64,000 bases of DNA from NCBI GenBank assembly GCA_029261135.1, contig JAJDBX010000077.1, forward strand, positions 1 through 64,000, read 5' to 3'. The DNA is from Nitrospirota bacterium (GTDB taxonomy: Bacteria > Nitrospirota > Nitrospiria > SBBL01 > JAADHI01). The translations under genes and the position numbers were made by a program. How positions within the stretch are numbered: the stretch's first letter is position 1; each line of letters begins with the position of its first letter. Of the stretch, positions 28,060-36,015 are shown piece after piece. A model generated the notes under the pieces. That model worked only from the letters and a program-made list of their open reading frames with translations. It was not told the origin of the DNA and searched no databases.

Positions 28060-29247
28060 ATGGACCAAGATTCAGAATCCATTTTTTTGAAAGCCCTGGA
28101 AGGCATCGCGCAGCAGGGTTTGAAAAAAGAGGAGAGTATCATCACCTCGCCGCAAGATGCCCAAATTAAAGTTTTCGGGCAGTCGATGCTCAACCTCTGT
28201 TCCAACAACTATCTCGGATTGGCGAATCACCCGAAGATCATCGAAGCTGCCGCATCAGGTCTCAATGCGCGGGGCTACGGCATGGCCTCCGTGCGTTTTA
28301 TTTGTGGGACACAAGACCTCCACCAAGCCTTGGAAGCGCGCATCAGCCAGTTTCTTAAATGCGATGACACGATTTTGTATTCCTCCTGCTTTGATGCCAA
28401 TACCGGCCTGTTTGAAACCTTGATCAATGAAGAAGACGCCATCCTGTCCGATACCTTAAACCATGCGTCAATCATCGACGGTATCCGTCTTTGTAAAGCA
28501 AAGCGTTTTCGCTACAGGCATTTGGATATGAGTGATTTAGAATGCCTGCTCAAAGAGGCTGTGAAATACCGGCTTCGCATGGTCGCTACGGATGGTGTTT
28601 TTTCGATGGATGGCGAGATTGCCCCTCTAGCTAAAATCTGTGATTTGGCCGAAAAATACAAGGCTATCGTTATGGTGGATGATTCCCATGCCACCGGCAT
28701 TATGGGAGAAGGTGGACGGGGCAGTATCGAACATTGTGGGGTATTGGGACGCGTTGATCTTGTGACCAGTACGCTTGGGAAAGCCATGGGCGGGGCTTCG
28801 GGGGGATTTACCTCAGGCCGAAAACCGATGATTGATCTTTTACGCCAAGGATCGCGGCCCTATCTTTTTTCAAATACCATTCCGCCCATGATTGCCGCTG
28901 CTGCAACGAAGGCATTTGAATTGGTGGCCGAAGGGGACGACTTGCGCGCGAGGCTGTGGGAGAACACGGCCTTTTTTCGCAAAGGCTTGGAAGAACTTGG
29001 TTTTATCATCAAGCACGGCATACATCCCATCATTCCAATCCTGATCGGGGATCCGGACTTGGCCAACAAAATGTCACGCGCCCTTTTTGAAGCAGGTCTT
29101 TATGCCGTTGCATTTTCTTTCCCTGTCGTCCCGGAAGGGCAAGACCGTATCCGTGTTCAGATGTCGGCGGCGCACGCGAAAGCCGATCTAACAGAGGCCT
29201 TGGAAAAATTTGAAGCGATCGGAAAATCGCTTCAAATTATTGAATAA
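28060..29247 (+). CDS. kbl: Glycine C-acetyltransferase (2-amino-3-ketobutyrate CoA ligase)
   Basis: 395-aa PLP-dependent alpha-oxoamine synthase that cleaves 2-amino-3-ketobutyrate with CoA to glycine and acetyl-CoA. The PLP lysine lies in [15 protein letters not shown], with [15 protein letters not shown] and [11 protein letters not shown] before it. It completes threonine-to-glycine conversion with tdh. It is translated from ATG 28060 behind AAAAGGT. Confidence 0.95.
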
Positions 29248-29330: not shown

Positions 29331-32300
29331 TTATAGTAAATCATCAATGGTTTGAAATGTCACATCGGGAAATTGTTGTGCAACGTGCTGCATCGGAACG
29401 GGTTTACTAAAGCAGACAACAGTTTGGATGTTGATATCTTTATCTCCAAATTTCAAGTTTTTGGTTAAAGGACGAATACGAGATCTTAAATATTCACAGC
29501 GATCAAGGTGCTTCAGTAAATCGTCCCGTTCTCCATCAGATCGGATTTCTCCCTTAAAGTTATTGAGTTGTTCCGCTATTTCGTTTGGTGTTTTTGCTTG
29601 TCTAAGGTTTTTACACTCAATTGCCATGAGGTTGCTTCCTCCTGGTTTCCAAGCAAGAATATCTACATCCCCCCAGTCTCTGTCCTGCTTTTCATTCAGC
29701 AATGCAGTGACTTTGCTTTCTAGGCGGGCTTTGTATCCTAGATTCTGGACAGCGTTAAATACTTTCTGGGCAAATTCGTGGCCACGGCGATCTAATTCAC
29801 TATCGATCCAAGATTTCATTTTGGAAGATTCAGTCTCCGAAGCTTCTATTTTTGCTTTGAAGTACAAATCTAAGATATATGAAACCCCCGTAGCCAAGAG
29901 ACCTGGCGAAATTATGTGCCGAGGATTCTCACCATCCTCTAACCTCACAATAGGGCGATCCAACAATGACAAACGGCGGCCAAATCGCCATGGGTACCAG
30001 TCCTTCTTTGCAAAACCTTCAGGTGCTGTATCCCAACTCTTCCGTGGCCAAAGCGCAAAGCGATCCAAAACAATCTTACCTGTCTCAAGAGAGGCTAGCT
30101 TGCTCTCATTACAATAAGATAAGATCTCGTTTCTTTGAGAAATGAATACACACTTTTGTTTTTCTATTGCGAGATTTTCAAAGGTATCTCGAACACCCCT
30201 CAGAGCATCAACAGATATGCCGAGTTCTGACTCAAATGCGATAAGAAACGCTTCAGGAAAACTTCCACTAACAGTTCGTACCGGCTTAAAAGGTTCATAA
30301 AGTTTTTCATAATTTTCCTCTGCGTATTCAAATTGTGAGGATTGATTCTCTCGCCCCAATGGTTCAAGAATATTAACTCTAAATCCAGTATGTGACTTGA
30401 TAAAGCCGCTGGGCATGATTTGAATTTTTGGGTCCATGACTTTTTTGTATATCGCGTCTGATAATCCTCCGAGGTGGAATAGATAAAGGGTATCCGCCAT
30501 CAAGGAGGTCAGATTAAGTTTACCTGCTGGCATACCCCCATCAAGAGGACATTCTGATATAGCCATTTCGATGATTAAGCGTGATGCGATCTTGGCGGCA
30601 ATAAAATGTGAATTTTTCTCTATAGCGACACCCTTGACTAAACCTTTTTTCTCATGAAGCGCAAGAGTCGCCCGAATTGTGTTATCCCATCGGGTTTGCT
30701 CGATATCATTCCCCTCAATATTTCTAAAAGCGTATTCGATTAGATTGGCTCGATCTAGAGTCTTAAGTCGAGTACGAATTCTTTTCCAGATTACATCCAC
30801 GACCTTATTTAAAAAAGAAACACTTTCATTCGCTTCGGTGAAACGATCTCCACTCCAGATATTCTTAATCACGCATCCAACTTCGAGTTGAGAAATGGTA
30901 TTATCTGCTTTGTCAACTTTGATGCCCTTGGGAAAATCGTAACTCTGAATATAATCTCTAAAACACTTTGCTTCGAAAGTATGGACATATCGAGCATCTT
31001 CGTTGGGCACTATTTTTTGAACAAGACAGTCGAGTTCTTCGTCTGAACGAGAATCTATGTCAAGAAGCCTGAGTACCCCAATTAATATCGTTTTAATAAT
31101 ATTGCGCTCGGCCTCGTTTTTTGGATTCCTGACACCTCCCAAAAAAGGGTCACGAAAACTAACACGAACCGCAGATTTTTCTCGATCTGTTGAAACTGAA
31201 AGAAGTGATGGAAGCAAATGGGCTGGGACAGGATCAGCCTGATCTTGGTGCATCTCATTGAAGTCGAGAACAATCATGACCACTTGAAACACATTACCTT
31301 GAATGCAGTCCTCAAATATTGGAGCCGCCCTTTCCATCCAGTGGTAAACTGCCTCGAAAAGCCGAAGAACTGTGTTACGAGAAAGTTTTGATTTTCCAGG
31401 TTCGACAGCGAGCCACCAGACTACTTTTTCTCCTACCCATGCTCCTCTGAGTTCCCCTCTTAGGGCAGAATCAATGCAACGATACTGGGGGCTATCGTCT
31501 TTCTCCTTAAAATAAGTCTCTGGTCCTTTTTGAACTCTGGCAAATTGACCGCTCGGAAGCGGAAGTACATGACGATCACACTCGCTGCGAACTTTTTTTC
31601 TAGTTTCCAATAAGCAGTTGGTTGGTATAACCAATCGTATTGGATCTCCCCCTAGTTCAATATCTGAATGGAGCAACATATAATCAGTGTCTAACCACCA
31701 ACTGTAAAGATTCAAAAAACCATTTATATTATGGATCGATATGCCTTGGTCTCTCAGAAACCTCTTCTGTTTTGCAAGCTTCCAAAGGAGAAAGGGAGAT
31801 GACTCAGATATCCATCCCAAGATATAGCGCTCAGGGGCAGATACGATTTCCACCCACCAATTCGCTGTTTCCTGTGAGTGATAAAAAATACTTGGCCGAC
31901 CATATCCACACCCAATTAGAAGAGTCATTCCCTGCTTAAATCCCTTTTGATGACAGAAATGGGATTTGGCTTCTTTAACTTTGATATCAATTTCTTTGCT
32001 TAACTCTTTTTCATCCTGTTCGGAAGCTGAAAAACCGTGGTTTAGATATCCTTCGATGCCGTCAACGATGGAAATCACTTGTAGATATCGTCCTTCATCG
32101 ATCCCCATCACAAAATCAAAAACTATCTTTCCTGAAATTTTTTTGGGAAATATAGGCTCATTTCTATGTTTTAGAGTTCCAAGTAGCGGCGTTTCACTGA
32201 GAAAGTTCCAATACTCTTCTGTAAAATGTTTGTTAAAGCTTTCCTGATATCCTCGACTGGCGATCCCATCGAGTACATGCCTTCGAACAGCAATACTAAT

Positions 32301-33062
32301 TGCTGTTGGTAAAAGAACGGTCCACTTTGTGGCATCGTACACAATAGGGCATTGCTCAAGAAGACTATCACCGATAGCTTGTTTCTTTAGTTGTGATCGA
32401 AGATTTGACTCAAAAATGAAAGGAGAAAGATCTGAGGGGGAAACCCCAAGGTGATCTAGCTCCGCCGTTGAGAAAGTAAGCGTTTGTCGAAGTTGCTTTA
32501 GTTTTTCTAATGAGGGTATTTTCATCGTTCCTTTTGGTTCTCCGCCCCCACTTGAAAAGCGTGCAAGTTGCCGCCTCGTTGTTATTTCCTCACTGAGTTT
32601 AAGTAGAGCACGAATCTCCAGTTTCATTTGTAGAAAATCTTGATCATCAGGCATTTTCTCAACAACATTTAAGATCCTCTGAAGGTAGAAATCACTACTT
32701 TCCCATGTCCCCTCAAAGATCCTTACGTTTCCCTCATCCGTAATAACATTGGAAACGAAAACATCCTCAAGTGGATCTTCGAACTGGGAGAAAATAGTCA
32801 TACCAAGTTCTTTGTTAAGCCATCTGCTAATGTCGCGATCTCTAGGTTTTTTCCTTCCTGAACCAAAAGCGATAAGAAGGTGGATCAGTCGTTCAAGACG
32901 TAGCGTATTTGCCTGGAAAGAAGGCTCGGTTAAAAGTCCTGCGACCAATGCGGCAGACTTTACTGGATGGAAGGGATCAAGTTGACGTTCAAGGTTCGGA
33001 CACTCCTCAAAAACATCAGAGATACTACCGGGAGATCCTGTTGGGGAGAAAAAGGGTAACAT
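29331..33062 (-). CDS. Orphan 1243-aa protein with C-terminal PD-(D/E)XK nuclease-like domain
   Basis: ATG 33062, with no good ribosome binding site. No known family was recognised for residues 1-1070, which are mixed alpha/beta with many aromatic residues and no evident ATPase, helicase or membrane segments. At about 1080-1243 a nuclease-like fold is visible: RRGHEFAQKVFNAVQNLGY, then ARLESKV, DWGDVDILAWKPG and LMAIECKNLRQ. This is the restriction-enzyme-like E...D...ExK core. The ordering and isolation suggest a defence or DNA-processing protein. The gene stands alone, between kbl and the broken lhr, and points away from lhr. Function is inferred from the C-terminus only. Confidence 0.8.
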   Translation of the reverse strand: MLPFFSPTGSPGSISDVFEECPNLERQLDPFHPVKSAALVAGLLTEPSFQANTLRLERLIHLLIAFGSGRKKPRDRDISRWLNKELGMTIFSQFEDPLEDVFVSNVITDEGNVRIFEGTWESSDFYLQRILNVVEKMPDDQDFLQMKLEIRALLKLSEEITTRRQLARFSSGGGEPKGTMKIPSLEKLKQLRQTLTFSTAELDHLGVSPSDLSPFIFESNLRSQLKKQAIGDSLLEQCPIVYDATKWTVLLPTAISIAVRRHVLDGIASRGYQESFNKHFTEEYWNFLSETPLLGTLKHRNEPIFPKKISGKIVFDFVMGIDEGRYLQVISIVDGIEGYLNHGFSASEQDEKELSKEIDIKVKEAKSHFCHQKGFKQGMTLLIGCGYGRPSIFYHSQETANWWVEIVSAPERYILGWISESSPFLLWKLAKQKRFLRDQGISIHNINGFLNLYSWWLDTDYMLLHSDIELGGDPIRLVIPTNCLLETRKKVRSECDRHVLPLPSGQFARVQKGPETYFKEKDDSPQYRCIDSALRGELRGAWVGEKVVWWLAVEPGKSKLSRNTVLRLFEAVYHWMERAAPIFEDCIQGNVFQVVMIVLDFNEMHQDQADPVPAHLLPSLLSVSTDREKSAVRVSFRDPFLGGVRNPKNEAERNIIKTILIGVLRLLDIDSRSDEELDCLVQKIVPNEDARYVHTFEAKCFRDYIQSYDFPKGIKVDKADNTISQLEVGCVIKNIWSGDRFTEANESVSFLNKVVDVIWKRIRTRLKTLDRANLIEYAFRNIEGNDIEQTRWDNTIRATLALHEKKGLVKGVAIEKNSHFIAAKIASRLIIEMAISECPLDGGMPAGKLNLTSLMADTLYLFHLGGLSDAIYKKVMDPKIQIMPSGFIKSHTGFRVNILEPLGRENQSSQFEYAEENYEKLYEPFKPVRTVSGSFPEAFLIAFESELGISVDALRGVRDTFENLAIEKQKCVFISQRNEILSYCNESKLASLETGKIVLDRFALWPRKSWDTAPEGFAKKDWYPWRFGRRLSLLDRPIVRLEDGENPRHIISPGLLATGVSYILDLYFKAKIEASETESSKMKSWIDSELDRRGHEFAQKVFNAVQNLGYKARLESKVTALLNEKQDRDWGDVDILAWKPGGSNLMAIECKNLRQAKTPNEIAEQLNNFKGEIRSDGERDDLLKHLDRCEYLRSRIRPLTKNLKFGDKDINIQTVVCFSKPVPMQHVAQQFPDVTFQTIDDLL

Positions 33063-33322: not shown

Positions 33323-36015
33323 ATGCCTTTAACCCCGTTTCATCCAATCATTAAAAAATGGTTTGAGACACGCTTCGGCGCGCCGACGGAAGCGCAGGCC
33401 CAAGGTTGGCCAGCCATCCTCGCTCAAAAAGACACGCTCATTGCCGCGCCGACGGGATCAGGAAAACCCTCGCGGCCTTCCTCACTTGTTTAGATCACTT
33501 GCTTTGCTCAGGGCTTTCCGCCATCTGCTCCAATGAGCAGTGGAAAGAGGTCTACGAACAAATCGGTGACATGATTCAAAAACACCGCAGTACCCTCATC
33601 TTTGTAAATACACGCAGGTTGTCTGAACGCGTCACCCACAACCTTTCAGAGATAATCGGAGAAGAACACATCACCTCTCATCACGGCAGCCTCTCCAAAA
33701 AAAGTCGGCTTTCAGCCGAAAGGCGACTGAAAGCGGGCACGCTGAAGGCCGTGGTTGCGACTGCCTCATTAGAGCTGGGGATTGATATCGGCTATATTGA
33801 CCTGGTCATCCAAATTGGAAGCCCCCGTTCTATCGCGACTTTTTTGCAGCGCATTGGCCGATCCGGCCACGCCCTCGGCACGATCCCGAAAGGACGGCTT
33901 GTCGCCCTGACGCGGGATGAACTACTAGAAGCCATTGACCTCATGTGTGCCATCCGCGCAGGGCGGCTCGATCAAACTGTGATCCCAGACGGCCCCCTCG
34001 ACATCTTGGCTCAGCAAATGGTGGCCATGTGTGCTGCTGAGGAATGGGAAGAGAAGGCCCTCTTTGATCTTGTGAAAAAATCCTATCCCTATCAACATCT
34101 TTCCAAAACCAATTTTGAGGCTTTACTCACGATGTTAAGTGAAGGCCTGCCAAGCAGCAATGGGCGCAGCGGGGCCCACCTGTATTGGGATCGTATCCAG
34201 GGTCGACTGAAAGCGCGGCGCGGCGCCCGCATTGTTGCTTCAACTTCGGGTGGGGCCATTCCCGATTTGGCCGATTACAAGGTAGTTGCGGAACCCGATC
34301 AAGTGAAGGTCGGAACGGTCGATGAAGACTTCGCCGTTGAAAGCCTGGCAGGGGATGTTTTTTTGCTCGGAAATACCTCGTGGCGGATTCAACAAGTGGG
34401 CTCCGGGGAAGTCATCGTCAAGGATGCACACGGGGCGGCACCGACCATCCCTTTCTGGCGTGGAGAAGCCCCCTCACGGACATTGGAACTCTCGCAAGAA
34501 GTTTCAAAGCTTCGGGAAGCCTTGGATCATCGACTTGATCAACCTGAAGTCGCTTTGGATTGGCTGATGCAGCAAGCCACGTTTTCTGAAACCAAAGGGA
34601 AAGAGATGGTGGATTATCTCAGTGCCCAAAAAGCGGCGGTCGGGATGATCCCCACGGCACGACATCTTTTGTTTGAACGGTTTTTTGATGAGTCCGGCGG
34701 TATGCAGATGGTCCTTCATTCCCCTATGGGCGGACGGGTCAACCGTGCTTACGGCCTCGCCTTGAGAAAACGCTTTTGCCGCCGCTTTGATTTTGAACTC
34801 CAGGCGAGCGCGGATGATAACGGTCTCGTACTTTCATTAGGGCCTCAGCAGGGTTTTGCGCTTGAAGAGGTGGTGAAAATGATTCGTCCTGAGGGGGCGC
34901 GTGCTGTGCTGGAACAGGCGCTCTTGCCCTCTCCTTTTTTTACAAATCGCTGGCGGTGGAATACCACACGCGCATTGGTCGTCCTGCGGCAGCGGGGTGG
35001 CAAGCGTGTGCCGCCCCCTTTGCAAAGATTTCGTGCCGATGATCTATTGACCAATCTCTTTCCTGCGCTCAGGGCTTGTCCGGATAATGGGATGTATGTG
35101 GGAAACCTGGAGATCCCGGATCATCCGCTGCTTCGGCAGACGGTCGATGATGTCCTGCATGAAGCGATGGATGTTGAGGCTTGGGTTCATTTATTAGAAG
35201 ACATTGAATCCAAAGAATAAAAGTGACTTGCATCGATACGAGGGAACCCTCTCCTTTTTCCTCCCAGTTGTTAAATGCTCACCCTATGCCTTTTTAGACG
35301 GCGCACTCTTTTTTAAAGAAATACAGACGAAAGCGAAGCTCTTGCCGGCACAACTTGAAAAAGTATTGTGGGAGCTGGTGGCCGCCGGGCGTATTAGCGG
35401 GGATGGCTTTAGCGCCATCCGATCACTGACAAAAACAAAACGTAATAATACGGATTATTTGAAGCGCCGTGCGAAACGATTTTGGGGCGGACGTGTGCCC
35501 GTCACACAAGAGACGGGCAGTGGTCGTTGGTGGCTCATGCCAACGACCACTGCGGATGATGCTGAAAATCAACAAGAAAAAGACCCCGTCCAGCTCTGGG
35601 CTTGGCAACTTTTAGAACGATACGGCATCTATTGGCACGGGAATCGGCCGCACCCCCTTGGCGGGCGCTTCTAGCGATCTACCGCCGGATGGAAGCGCGG
35701 GGTGAAATCCGTGGCGGACGCTTTGTCCACGGCGTTGGCGGAGAGCAATTTGCATTGCCGGAAGTCGTTCCGCTTCTACGGCAGGCCAGTCAAAAAGCAA
35801 AAACCGAAGAAGTCATTATTCTCTCGGCAGCAGACCTGATGAACCTCATTGGAATACTGACTTCGGGTTCGAAGGTGACGGCTTCCGCTTCCAATACCGT
35901 GGCTTATCTTGGCGGTTTACATGTGGGGCATCGCCAGGGGAAGGTTCTATGGATTGATCCGAAGCTTGGTGAAGAAAGCAAAGAAAAAGTATCTCAAGGC
36001 TTGAGACGGTTTTAG
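33323..36015 (+). pseudogene. lhr: Broken Lhr-type ATP-dependent helicase
   Basis: The ATG at 33323 begins [20 protein letters not shown] and runs into Walker [10 protein letters not shown], then shifts frame: one missing base at about 33465 separates GSGK from [17 protein letters not shown]. The DNA between motif I and SNEQWKEVYEQIGDMI is deleted, removing about 150-200 residues including the DEAD/DEVH box. Helicase domain 2 (STLIFVNTRRLSERV, VVATASLELGIDIG, QRIGRSGHALG) and the Lhr C-terminal domains remain in the frame 33406-35220. Further shifts occur near 35215, 35289 and 35625 (KVTCIDTREPSPFSSQLLNA and ARGEIRGGRFVHGVGGEQF lie in other frames). Intact Lhr proteins are about 1400 aa. Confidence 0.85.
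35517..35553. repeat. Perfect 14-bp inverted repeat inside the lhr pseudogene
   Basis: GCAGTGGTCGTTGG and CCAACGACCACTGC flank a 9-base loop. This GC-rich perfect hairpin lies in the decayed C-terminal region. No T tract follows, so it is not a classical terminator; it may be coincidental or a small regulatory hairpin. Confidence 0.6.

What the first reader, a model, noticed from the sequence alone, without database searches (positions are those of the whole stretch)
29331..33062. Orphan 1243-residue protein with a C-terminal PD-(D/E)XK nuclease-like core
Most of the chain has no family I recognise. The last 160 residues show a restriction-endonuclease-like E...D...ExK arrangement (ARLESKV, DWGDVDIL, LMAIECKN). 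It stands alone beside a wrecked helicase gene, with no adjacent partner. Large standalone proteins with terminal nuclease domains are recurrent in antiviral defence, so this may be a single-gene defence system. The defence role is inference.
Basis: partly seen in the sequence, partly recalled or inferred. Interest (0 to 1): 0.62.

Follow-up and report, generated by a model that had tools for sequence, protein, structure and literature searches.

The report
Upx, a known single-gene phage-defence nuclease
The large "orphan" protein is an intact, fairly distant copy of Upx, an already catalogued one-gene bacterial anti-phage protein with a DNA-cutting domain at its end, so the find is correct in kind but not new.

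Summary
The ORF is real: window 29331-33062, minus strand, 1243 codons, no internal stop. It is not an orphan. It matches the anti-phage protein Upx over its whole length: PADLOC Upx, E 6e-223, residues 13-1229; NCBIfam Upx_antiphage, 830 bits, under that model's curated cut-off of 1900. The solved Upx structure 9wuf matches at phmmer E 1.9e-140. AlphaFold2 models of both parts find Upx first and far ahead: Z 41.0 over 950 residues for residues 1-1000, Z 19.6 for the C-terminal part. The C-terminal PD-(D/E)XK core is confirmed; D1134, E1149 and K1151 are invariant in 57 of 57 long homologues. Upx is patchy (none in 57 other relatives checked) and sits in a junction that is only 81 bp wide in a sister species. 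The adjacent lhr helicase is a pseudogene, intact in relatives, and not part of the system. The nearest relative (Propionispora, 47% identity) lies near type III restriction and integrase genes. The single-gene-defence reading is supported, by family membership. Trigger and substrate are not shown here. A new, divergent member of a known family.

The parts
29331..33062 (-). upx gene, 1243 aa, ATG start at 33062, stop at 29331
30063..33062 (-). residues 1-1000, the non-nuclease body; predicted fold has solved Upx as its only strong match (Z 41.0, 950 residues)
29334..29822 (-). residues about 1081-1243, PD-(D/E)XK nuclease domain (D1134, E1149, K1151)
33324..36015 (+). lhr helicase pseudogene (neighbour, not part of Upx): retains parts matching 1-48, 249-844 and 1202-1449 of a 1458-aa intact Lhr, in several frames
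28060..29247 (+). kbl-like 2-amino-3-ketobutyrate CoA ligase (flanking housekeeping gene, not part of the system)
   Evidence: name from sequence inspection

Best explanation
The gene encodes Upx, a stand-alone anti-phage protein. Shown here: membership in the family by sequence and fold, an intact reading frame, and an intact PD-(D/E)XK active site at the C-terminus. Inferred: the roughly 1080-residue body senses a phage component or phage nucleic acid and holds the nuclease in check until infection, after which the C-terminal domain cleaves DNA in a metal-dependent way. No methyltransferase or other partner is encoded beside it, so self is probably spared because the enzyme is activated by infection or recognises a phage-specific feature, not by host modification.
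For: PADLOC Upx E 6e-223 over 13-1229. NCBIfam Upx_antiphage 830 bits, level with a Vibrio europaeus protein (834 bits), a species whose upx is reported in PMC12824646. phmmer to solved Upx 9wuf, E 1.9e-140 over residues 31-1213. Predicted folds: Z 19.6 and 41.0 to 9wuf. D1134/E1149/K1151 invariant in 57 homologues. C-terminal fold next nearest to Cdn1, Can2/Card1, AF1548, and further down Shedu SduA and McrBC nucleases. Patchy distribution and an 81-bp empty junction in a sister species. Nearest relative in a restriction/integrase setting.
Against: The score is below the NCBIfam equivalog cut-off (830 against 1900 bits), and identity to the Salmonella-type Upx is only about 27%, so trigger and target phages may differ. 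No experiment here shows nuclease activity or phage resistance. In this genome it does not sit in a visible defence island.
Confidence: 0.9

Rival explanations
1. A distant homologue of Upx that has taken on another role, such as plasmid exclusion or DNA repair, and is no longer an anti-phage protein.
For: Below the NCBIfam cut-off; solitary between housekeeping genes of the chromosome.
Against: Full-length match with intact active site; patchy distribution and junction insertion typical of accessory defence genes; closest relative lies by restriction genes.
Confidence: 0.07
2. The nuclease and the adjacent Lhr-type helicase form a two-gene helicase-nuclease system, of which the helicase is now broken.
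For: The two genes are divergent neighbours; Lhr pieces also match the PADLOC DpdJ model.
Against: The lhr gene is present and intact in relatives that have no upx, directly after kbl in one of them; an Lhr-type helicase was not among the recurrent neighbours of upx listed.
Confidence: 0.02
3. A decaying, non-functional copy of upx.
For: The neighbouring gene is a pseudogene; promoter-like sites do not exceed chance.
Against: 1243 codons without a stop or frameshift, and invariant family residues kept.
Confidence: 0.05

Closest known systems
Upx (PADLOC PDLC02221; NCBIfam NF042954; PDB 9wuf)
   Same: Full-length sequence match, same length (1243 against 1240-1272), same predicted fold in both parts, same C-terminal PD-(D/E)XK residues, single gene
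   Different: About 27% identity to the Salmonella-type protein; scores under the NCBIfam equivalog cut-off; groups with a Propionispora protein on a separate branch
Shedu SduA
   Same: Stand-alone defence protein with a PD-(D/E)XK nuclease domain (Z 7.1 to the C-terminal model)
   Different: About 400 residues with a different body; no sequence match among solved chains
Can2/Card1/Cdn1 CRISPR ancillary nucleases
   Same: Among the nearest nuclease-domain folds after Upx itself (Z 7 to 10)
   Different: These have a CARF ligand-binding domain (established knowledge); none was listed as a match of the Upx body

Membership tests
Upx | Full-length match to the PADLOC Upx model | tested here: met
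   740.7 bits, E 6e-223, model 29-1252 of 1271
Upx | Score above the NCBIfam NF042954 equivalog cut-off (1900 bits); this defines the narrow tested-type subclade, not the whole family | tested here: not met
   830 bits; the Vibrio europaeus (834), Propionispora (854) and Pseudomonas L029 (1688) proteins also fall short, Pseudomonas L044 passes (2114)
Upx | Overall fold of solved Upx | tested here: met
   9wuf: Z 41.0, rmsd 3.5, 950 residues for 1-1000; Z 19.6, 235 residues, rmsd 13.9 for 985-1243
Upx | C-terminal PD-(D/E)XK active site | tested here: met
   D1134, E1149, K1151 invariant in 57 of 57
Upx | Single-gene organisation | tested here: met
   No co-directed partner; flanked by kbl and broken lhr, both present without upx in relatives
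Upx | Protects against phage | not testable with these tools
   Needs a plaque assay
Dpd (DpdJ helicase) system | DpdJ-type helicase encoded together with other dpd genes | tested here: inconclusive
   The DpdJ hit is to the neighbouring helicase pseudogene, which Pfam WH_Lhr and DEAD_assoc mark as Lhr and whose orthologues are intact in relatives; not every window protein was scanned for Dpd

The most novel reading that the evidence does not exclude
The window protein and the Propionispora protein form a separate Upx lineage with a different trigger from the Salmonella-type Upx; residues about 503-690 carry an aminopeptidase/YbeY-like fold without its metal-binding motif, which could be a converted sensor domain.
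Probability: 0.25. Interest if true: 0.35.

Novelty: new member of a known kind. Interest (0 to 1): 0.13.

Why it matters
It adds an intact, divergent branch to Upx, a defence protein for which no mechanism paper was found in the library searched. The conserved residues across 57 sequences (about 20-47% identical to this one) give a short list for mutagenesis. Otherwise ordinary.

Tried and rejected
Pfam: no family for the protein. Phage records: no match; the two IMG/VR hits, L073 and L074, are near-copies of bacterial Upx. A single-sequence scan of genome contigs found nothing; the alignment scan found 63 loci. Transposition footprints: no repeats bounding the gene that stand out. Promoters and terminators: no excess over shuffles. 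Rfam: only two tRNAs in the window. A helicase partnership was rejected by synteny. Near-against-far neighbour scans gave defence families in both sets and no clean gradient, so they show defence-rich settings but no specific partner. Papers on Upx in the library list it without mechanism. The body outside residues 503-690 had no clear solved match other than Upx, which is not evidence of a new fold.

Full report
What is there. The window holds an uninterrupted 1243-codon frame at 29331-33062 on the minus strand. Pfam gives no family, which explains why it looked like an orphan. The PADLOC library, however, matches it end to end with the defence family Upx (E 6e-223, residues 13-1229), and NCBIfam with 'anti-phage protein Upx' (830 bits). 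By sequence it matches one solved chain well, 9wuf, over residues 31-1213 (E 1.9e-140), and the fold library names 9wuf 'Cryo-EM structure of Upx'. The stretch of 9wuf that was printed reads the same as a Salmonella enterica sequence in L007.

Membership. The NCBIfam score is below that model's equivalog cut-off of 1900 bits. The cut-off is met by a Pseudomonas protein (L044, 2114 bits) but not by other full-length Upx relatives, including one from Vibrio europaeus (834 bits), a species in which upx has been reported in the literature (PMC12824646). I therefore take the window protein as a member of the Upx family but not as an equivalog of the narrow subclade. In a tree of 57 long sequences it pairs with a Propionispora protein (support 100, 47% identity) on a separate branch.

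Fold. AlphaFold2 models were made for residues 985-1243 (mean pLDDT 88.7) and 1-1000 (mean pLDDT 88.3). The first match of both is solved Upx: Z 19.6 for the C-terminal part (rmsd 13.9, which I read as a shift between its two subregions) and Z 41.0 with rmsd 3.5 over 950 residues for the rest. The next matches of the C-terminal model are mostly PD-(D/E)XK-type nucleases and relatives: Cdn1, AF1548, XisH, Can2, Card1, FokI, and lower down SduA and McrBC.

Active site. In an alignment of 57 long relatives D1134, E1149 and K1151 are invariant, as are G1131 and F1097. The scan pattern that fetched most of these sequences held the D motif, so its conservation is partly selected; the ECK motif was not in the pattern.

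Neighbourhood. On one side lies a kbl-like gene (28060-29247, plus strand); on the other lies an lhr helicase that begins near 33324 and is broken: against the 1458-aa intact Lhr of a sister species only parts 1-48, 249-844 and 1202-1449 remain, in several frames. Lhr frames of 1458-1470 codons are intact in six other genomes of the family. In one sister species kbl and lhr are 81 bp apart with nothing between them; in another the same junction holds a 600-aa gene on the minus strand whose N-terminus looks like a PAS-type sensor (name from sequence inspection). Thus upx is an accessory gene in a variable junction, and the broken helicase is a coincident neighbour. None of 57 other relatives has a match, and only 4 of 396 genomes of the phylum, this one included, have one. 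G+C in the gene is about 0.40-0.43 against 0.45-0.54 in most of the flanking kilobases.

Relatives. The 63 loci span Pseudomonadota, Bacillota, Planctomycetota, Myxococcota, Acidobacteriota, Chloroflexota, Bacteroidota and Methanobrevibacter. Pooled neighbours within 2.5 kb match Gabija GajB, Septu PtuA, JetA, type I restriction, HerA and Avs3a models and integrases or resolvases; neighbours beyond 6 kb match restriction and CBASS genes too, so no gradient was shown. The Propionispora copy lies near a type III restriction cluster, an AlbA_2 protein, an SMC-like ATPase and an integrase. In one genome of the same class (L004) upx follows a type I specificity subunit. A Bosea plasmid copy lies in the same stretch as TIR-domain and caspase-family genes.

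How it works. Shown: family, fold and active site. Inferred: the body senses infection and releases the nuclease, which cuts DNA. Because there is no methyltransferase beside the gene, self-protection probably comes from infection-dependent activation or from a phage-specific feature. I hold family membership at about 0.95 and the activation model at about 0.5.

Verdict. An ordinary, explained find.

Noticed in passing
33324-36015: The lhr helicase gene is a pseudogene with two internal losses and frameshifts, while it is intact (1458-1470 codons) in six other genomes of the family.
   Followed up: yes
L093:3276-5078: A sister species carries a different 600-aa minus-strand gene in the same kbl-lhr junction, so this may be a site of repeated gene insertion.
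   Followed up: partly
window 30993-31556 (residues 503-690 of Upx): Predicted fold resembles M1/M61 aminopeptidases and YbeY (Z 7-8.7, near background) but the HExxH metal motif is absent; N649, E652 and H694 are nearly invariant.
   Followed up: partly
L063 and L065 (same contig of Paludibacterium denitrificans): Two Upx copies on one contig, both broken into many frames; could be decay or a noisy assembly.
   Followed up: no
L071, L072, L066, L067, L070: Distant Upx-like proteins in Methanobrevibacter and Bacteroidota (21-23% identity), a possible sister family.
   Followed up: no
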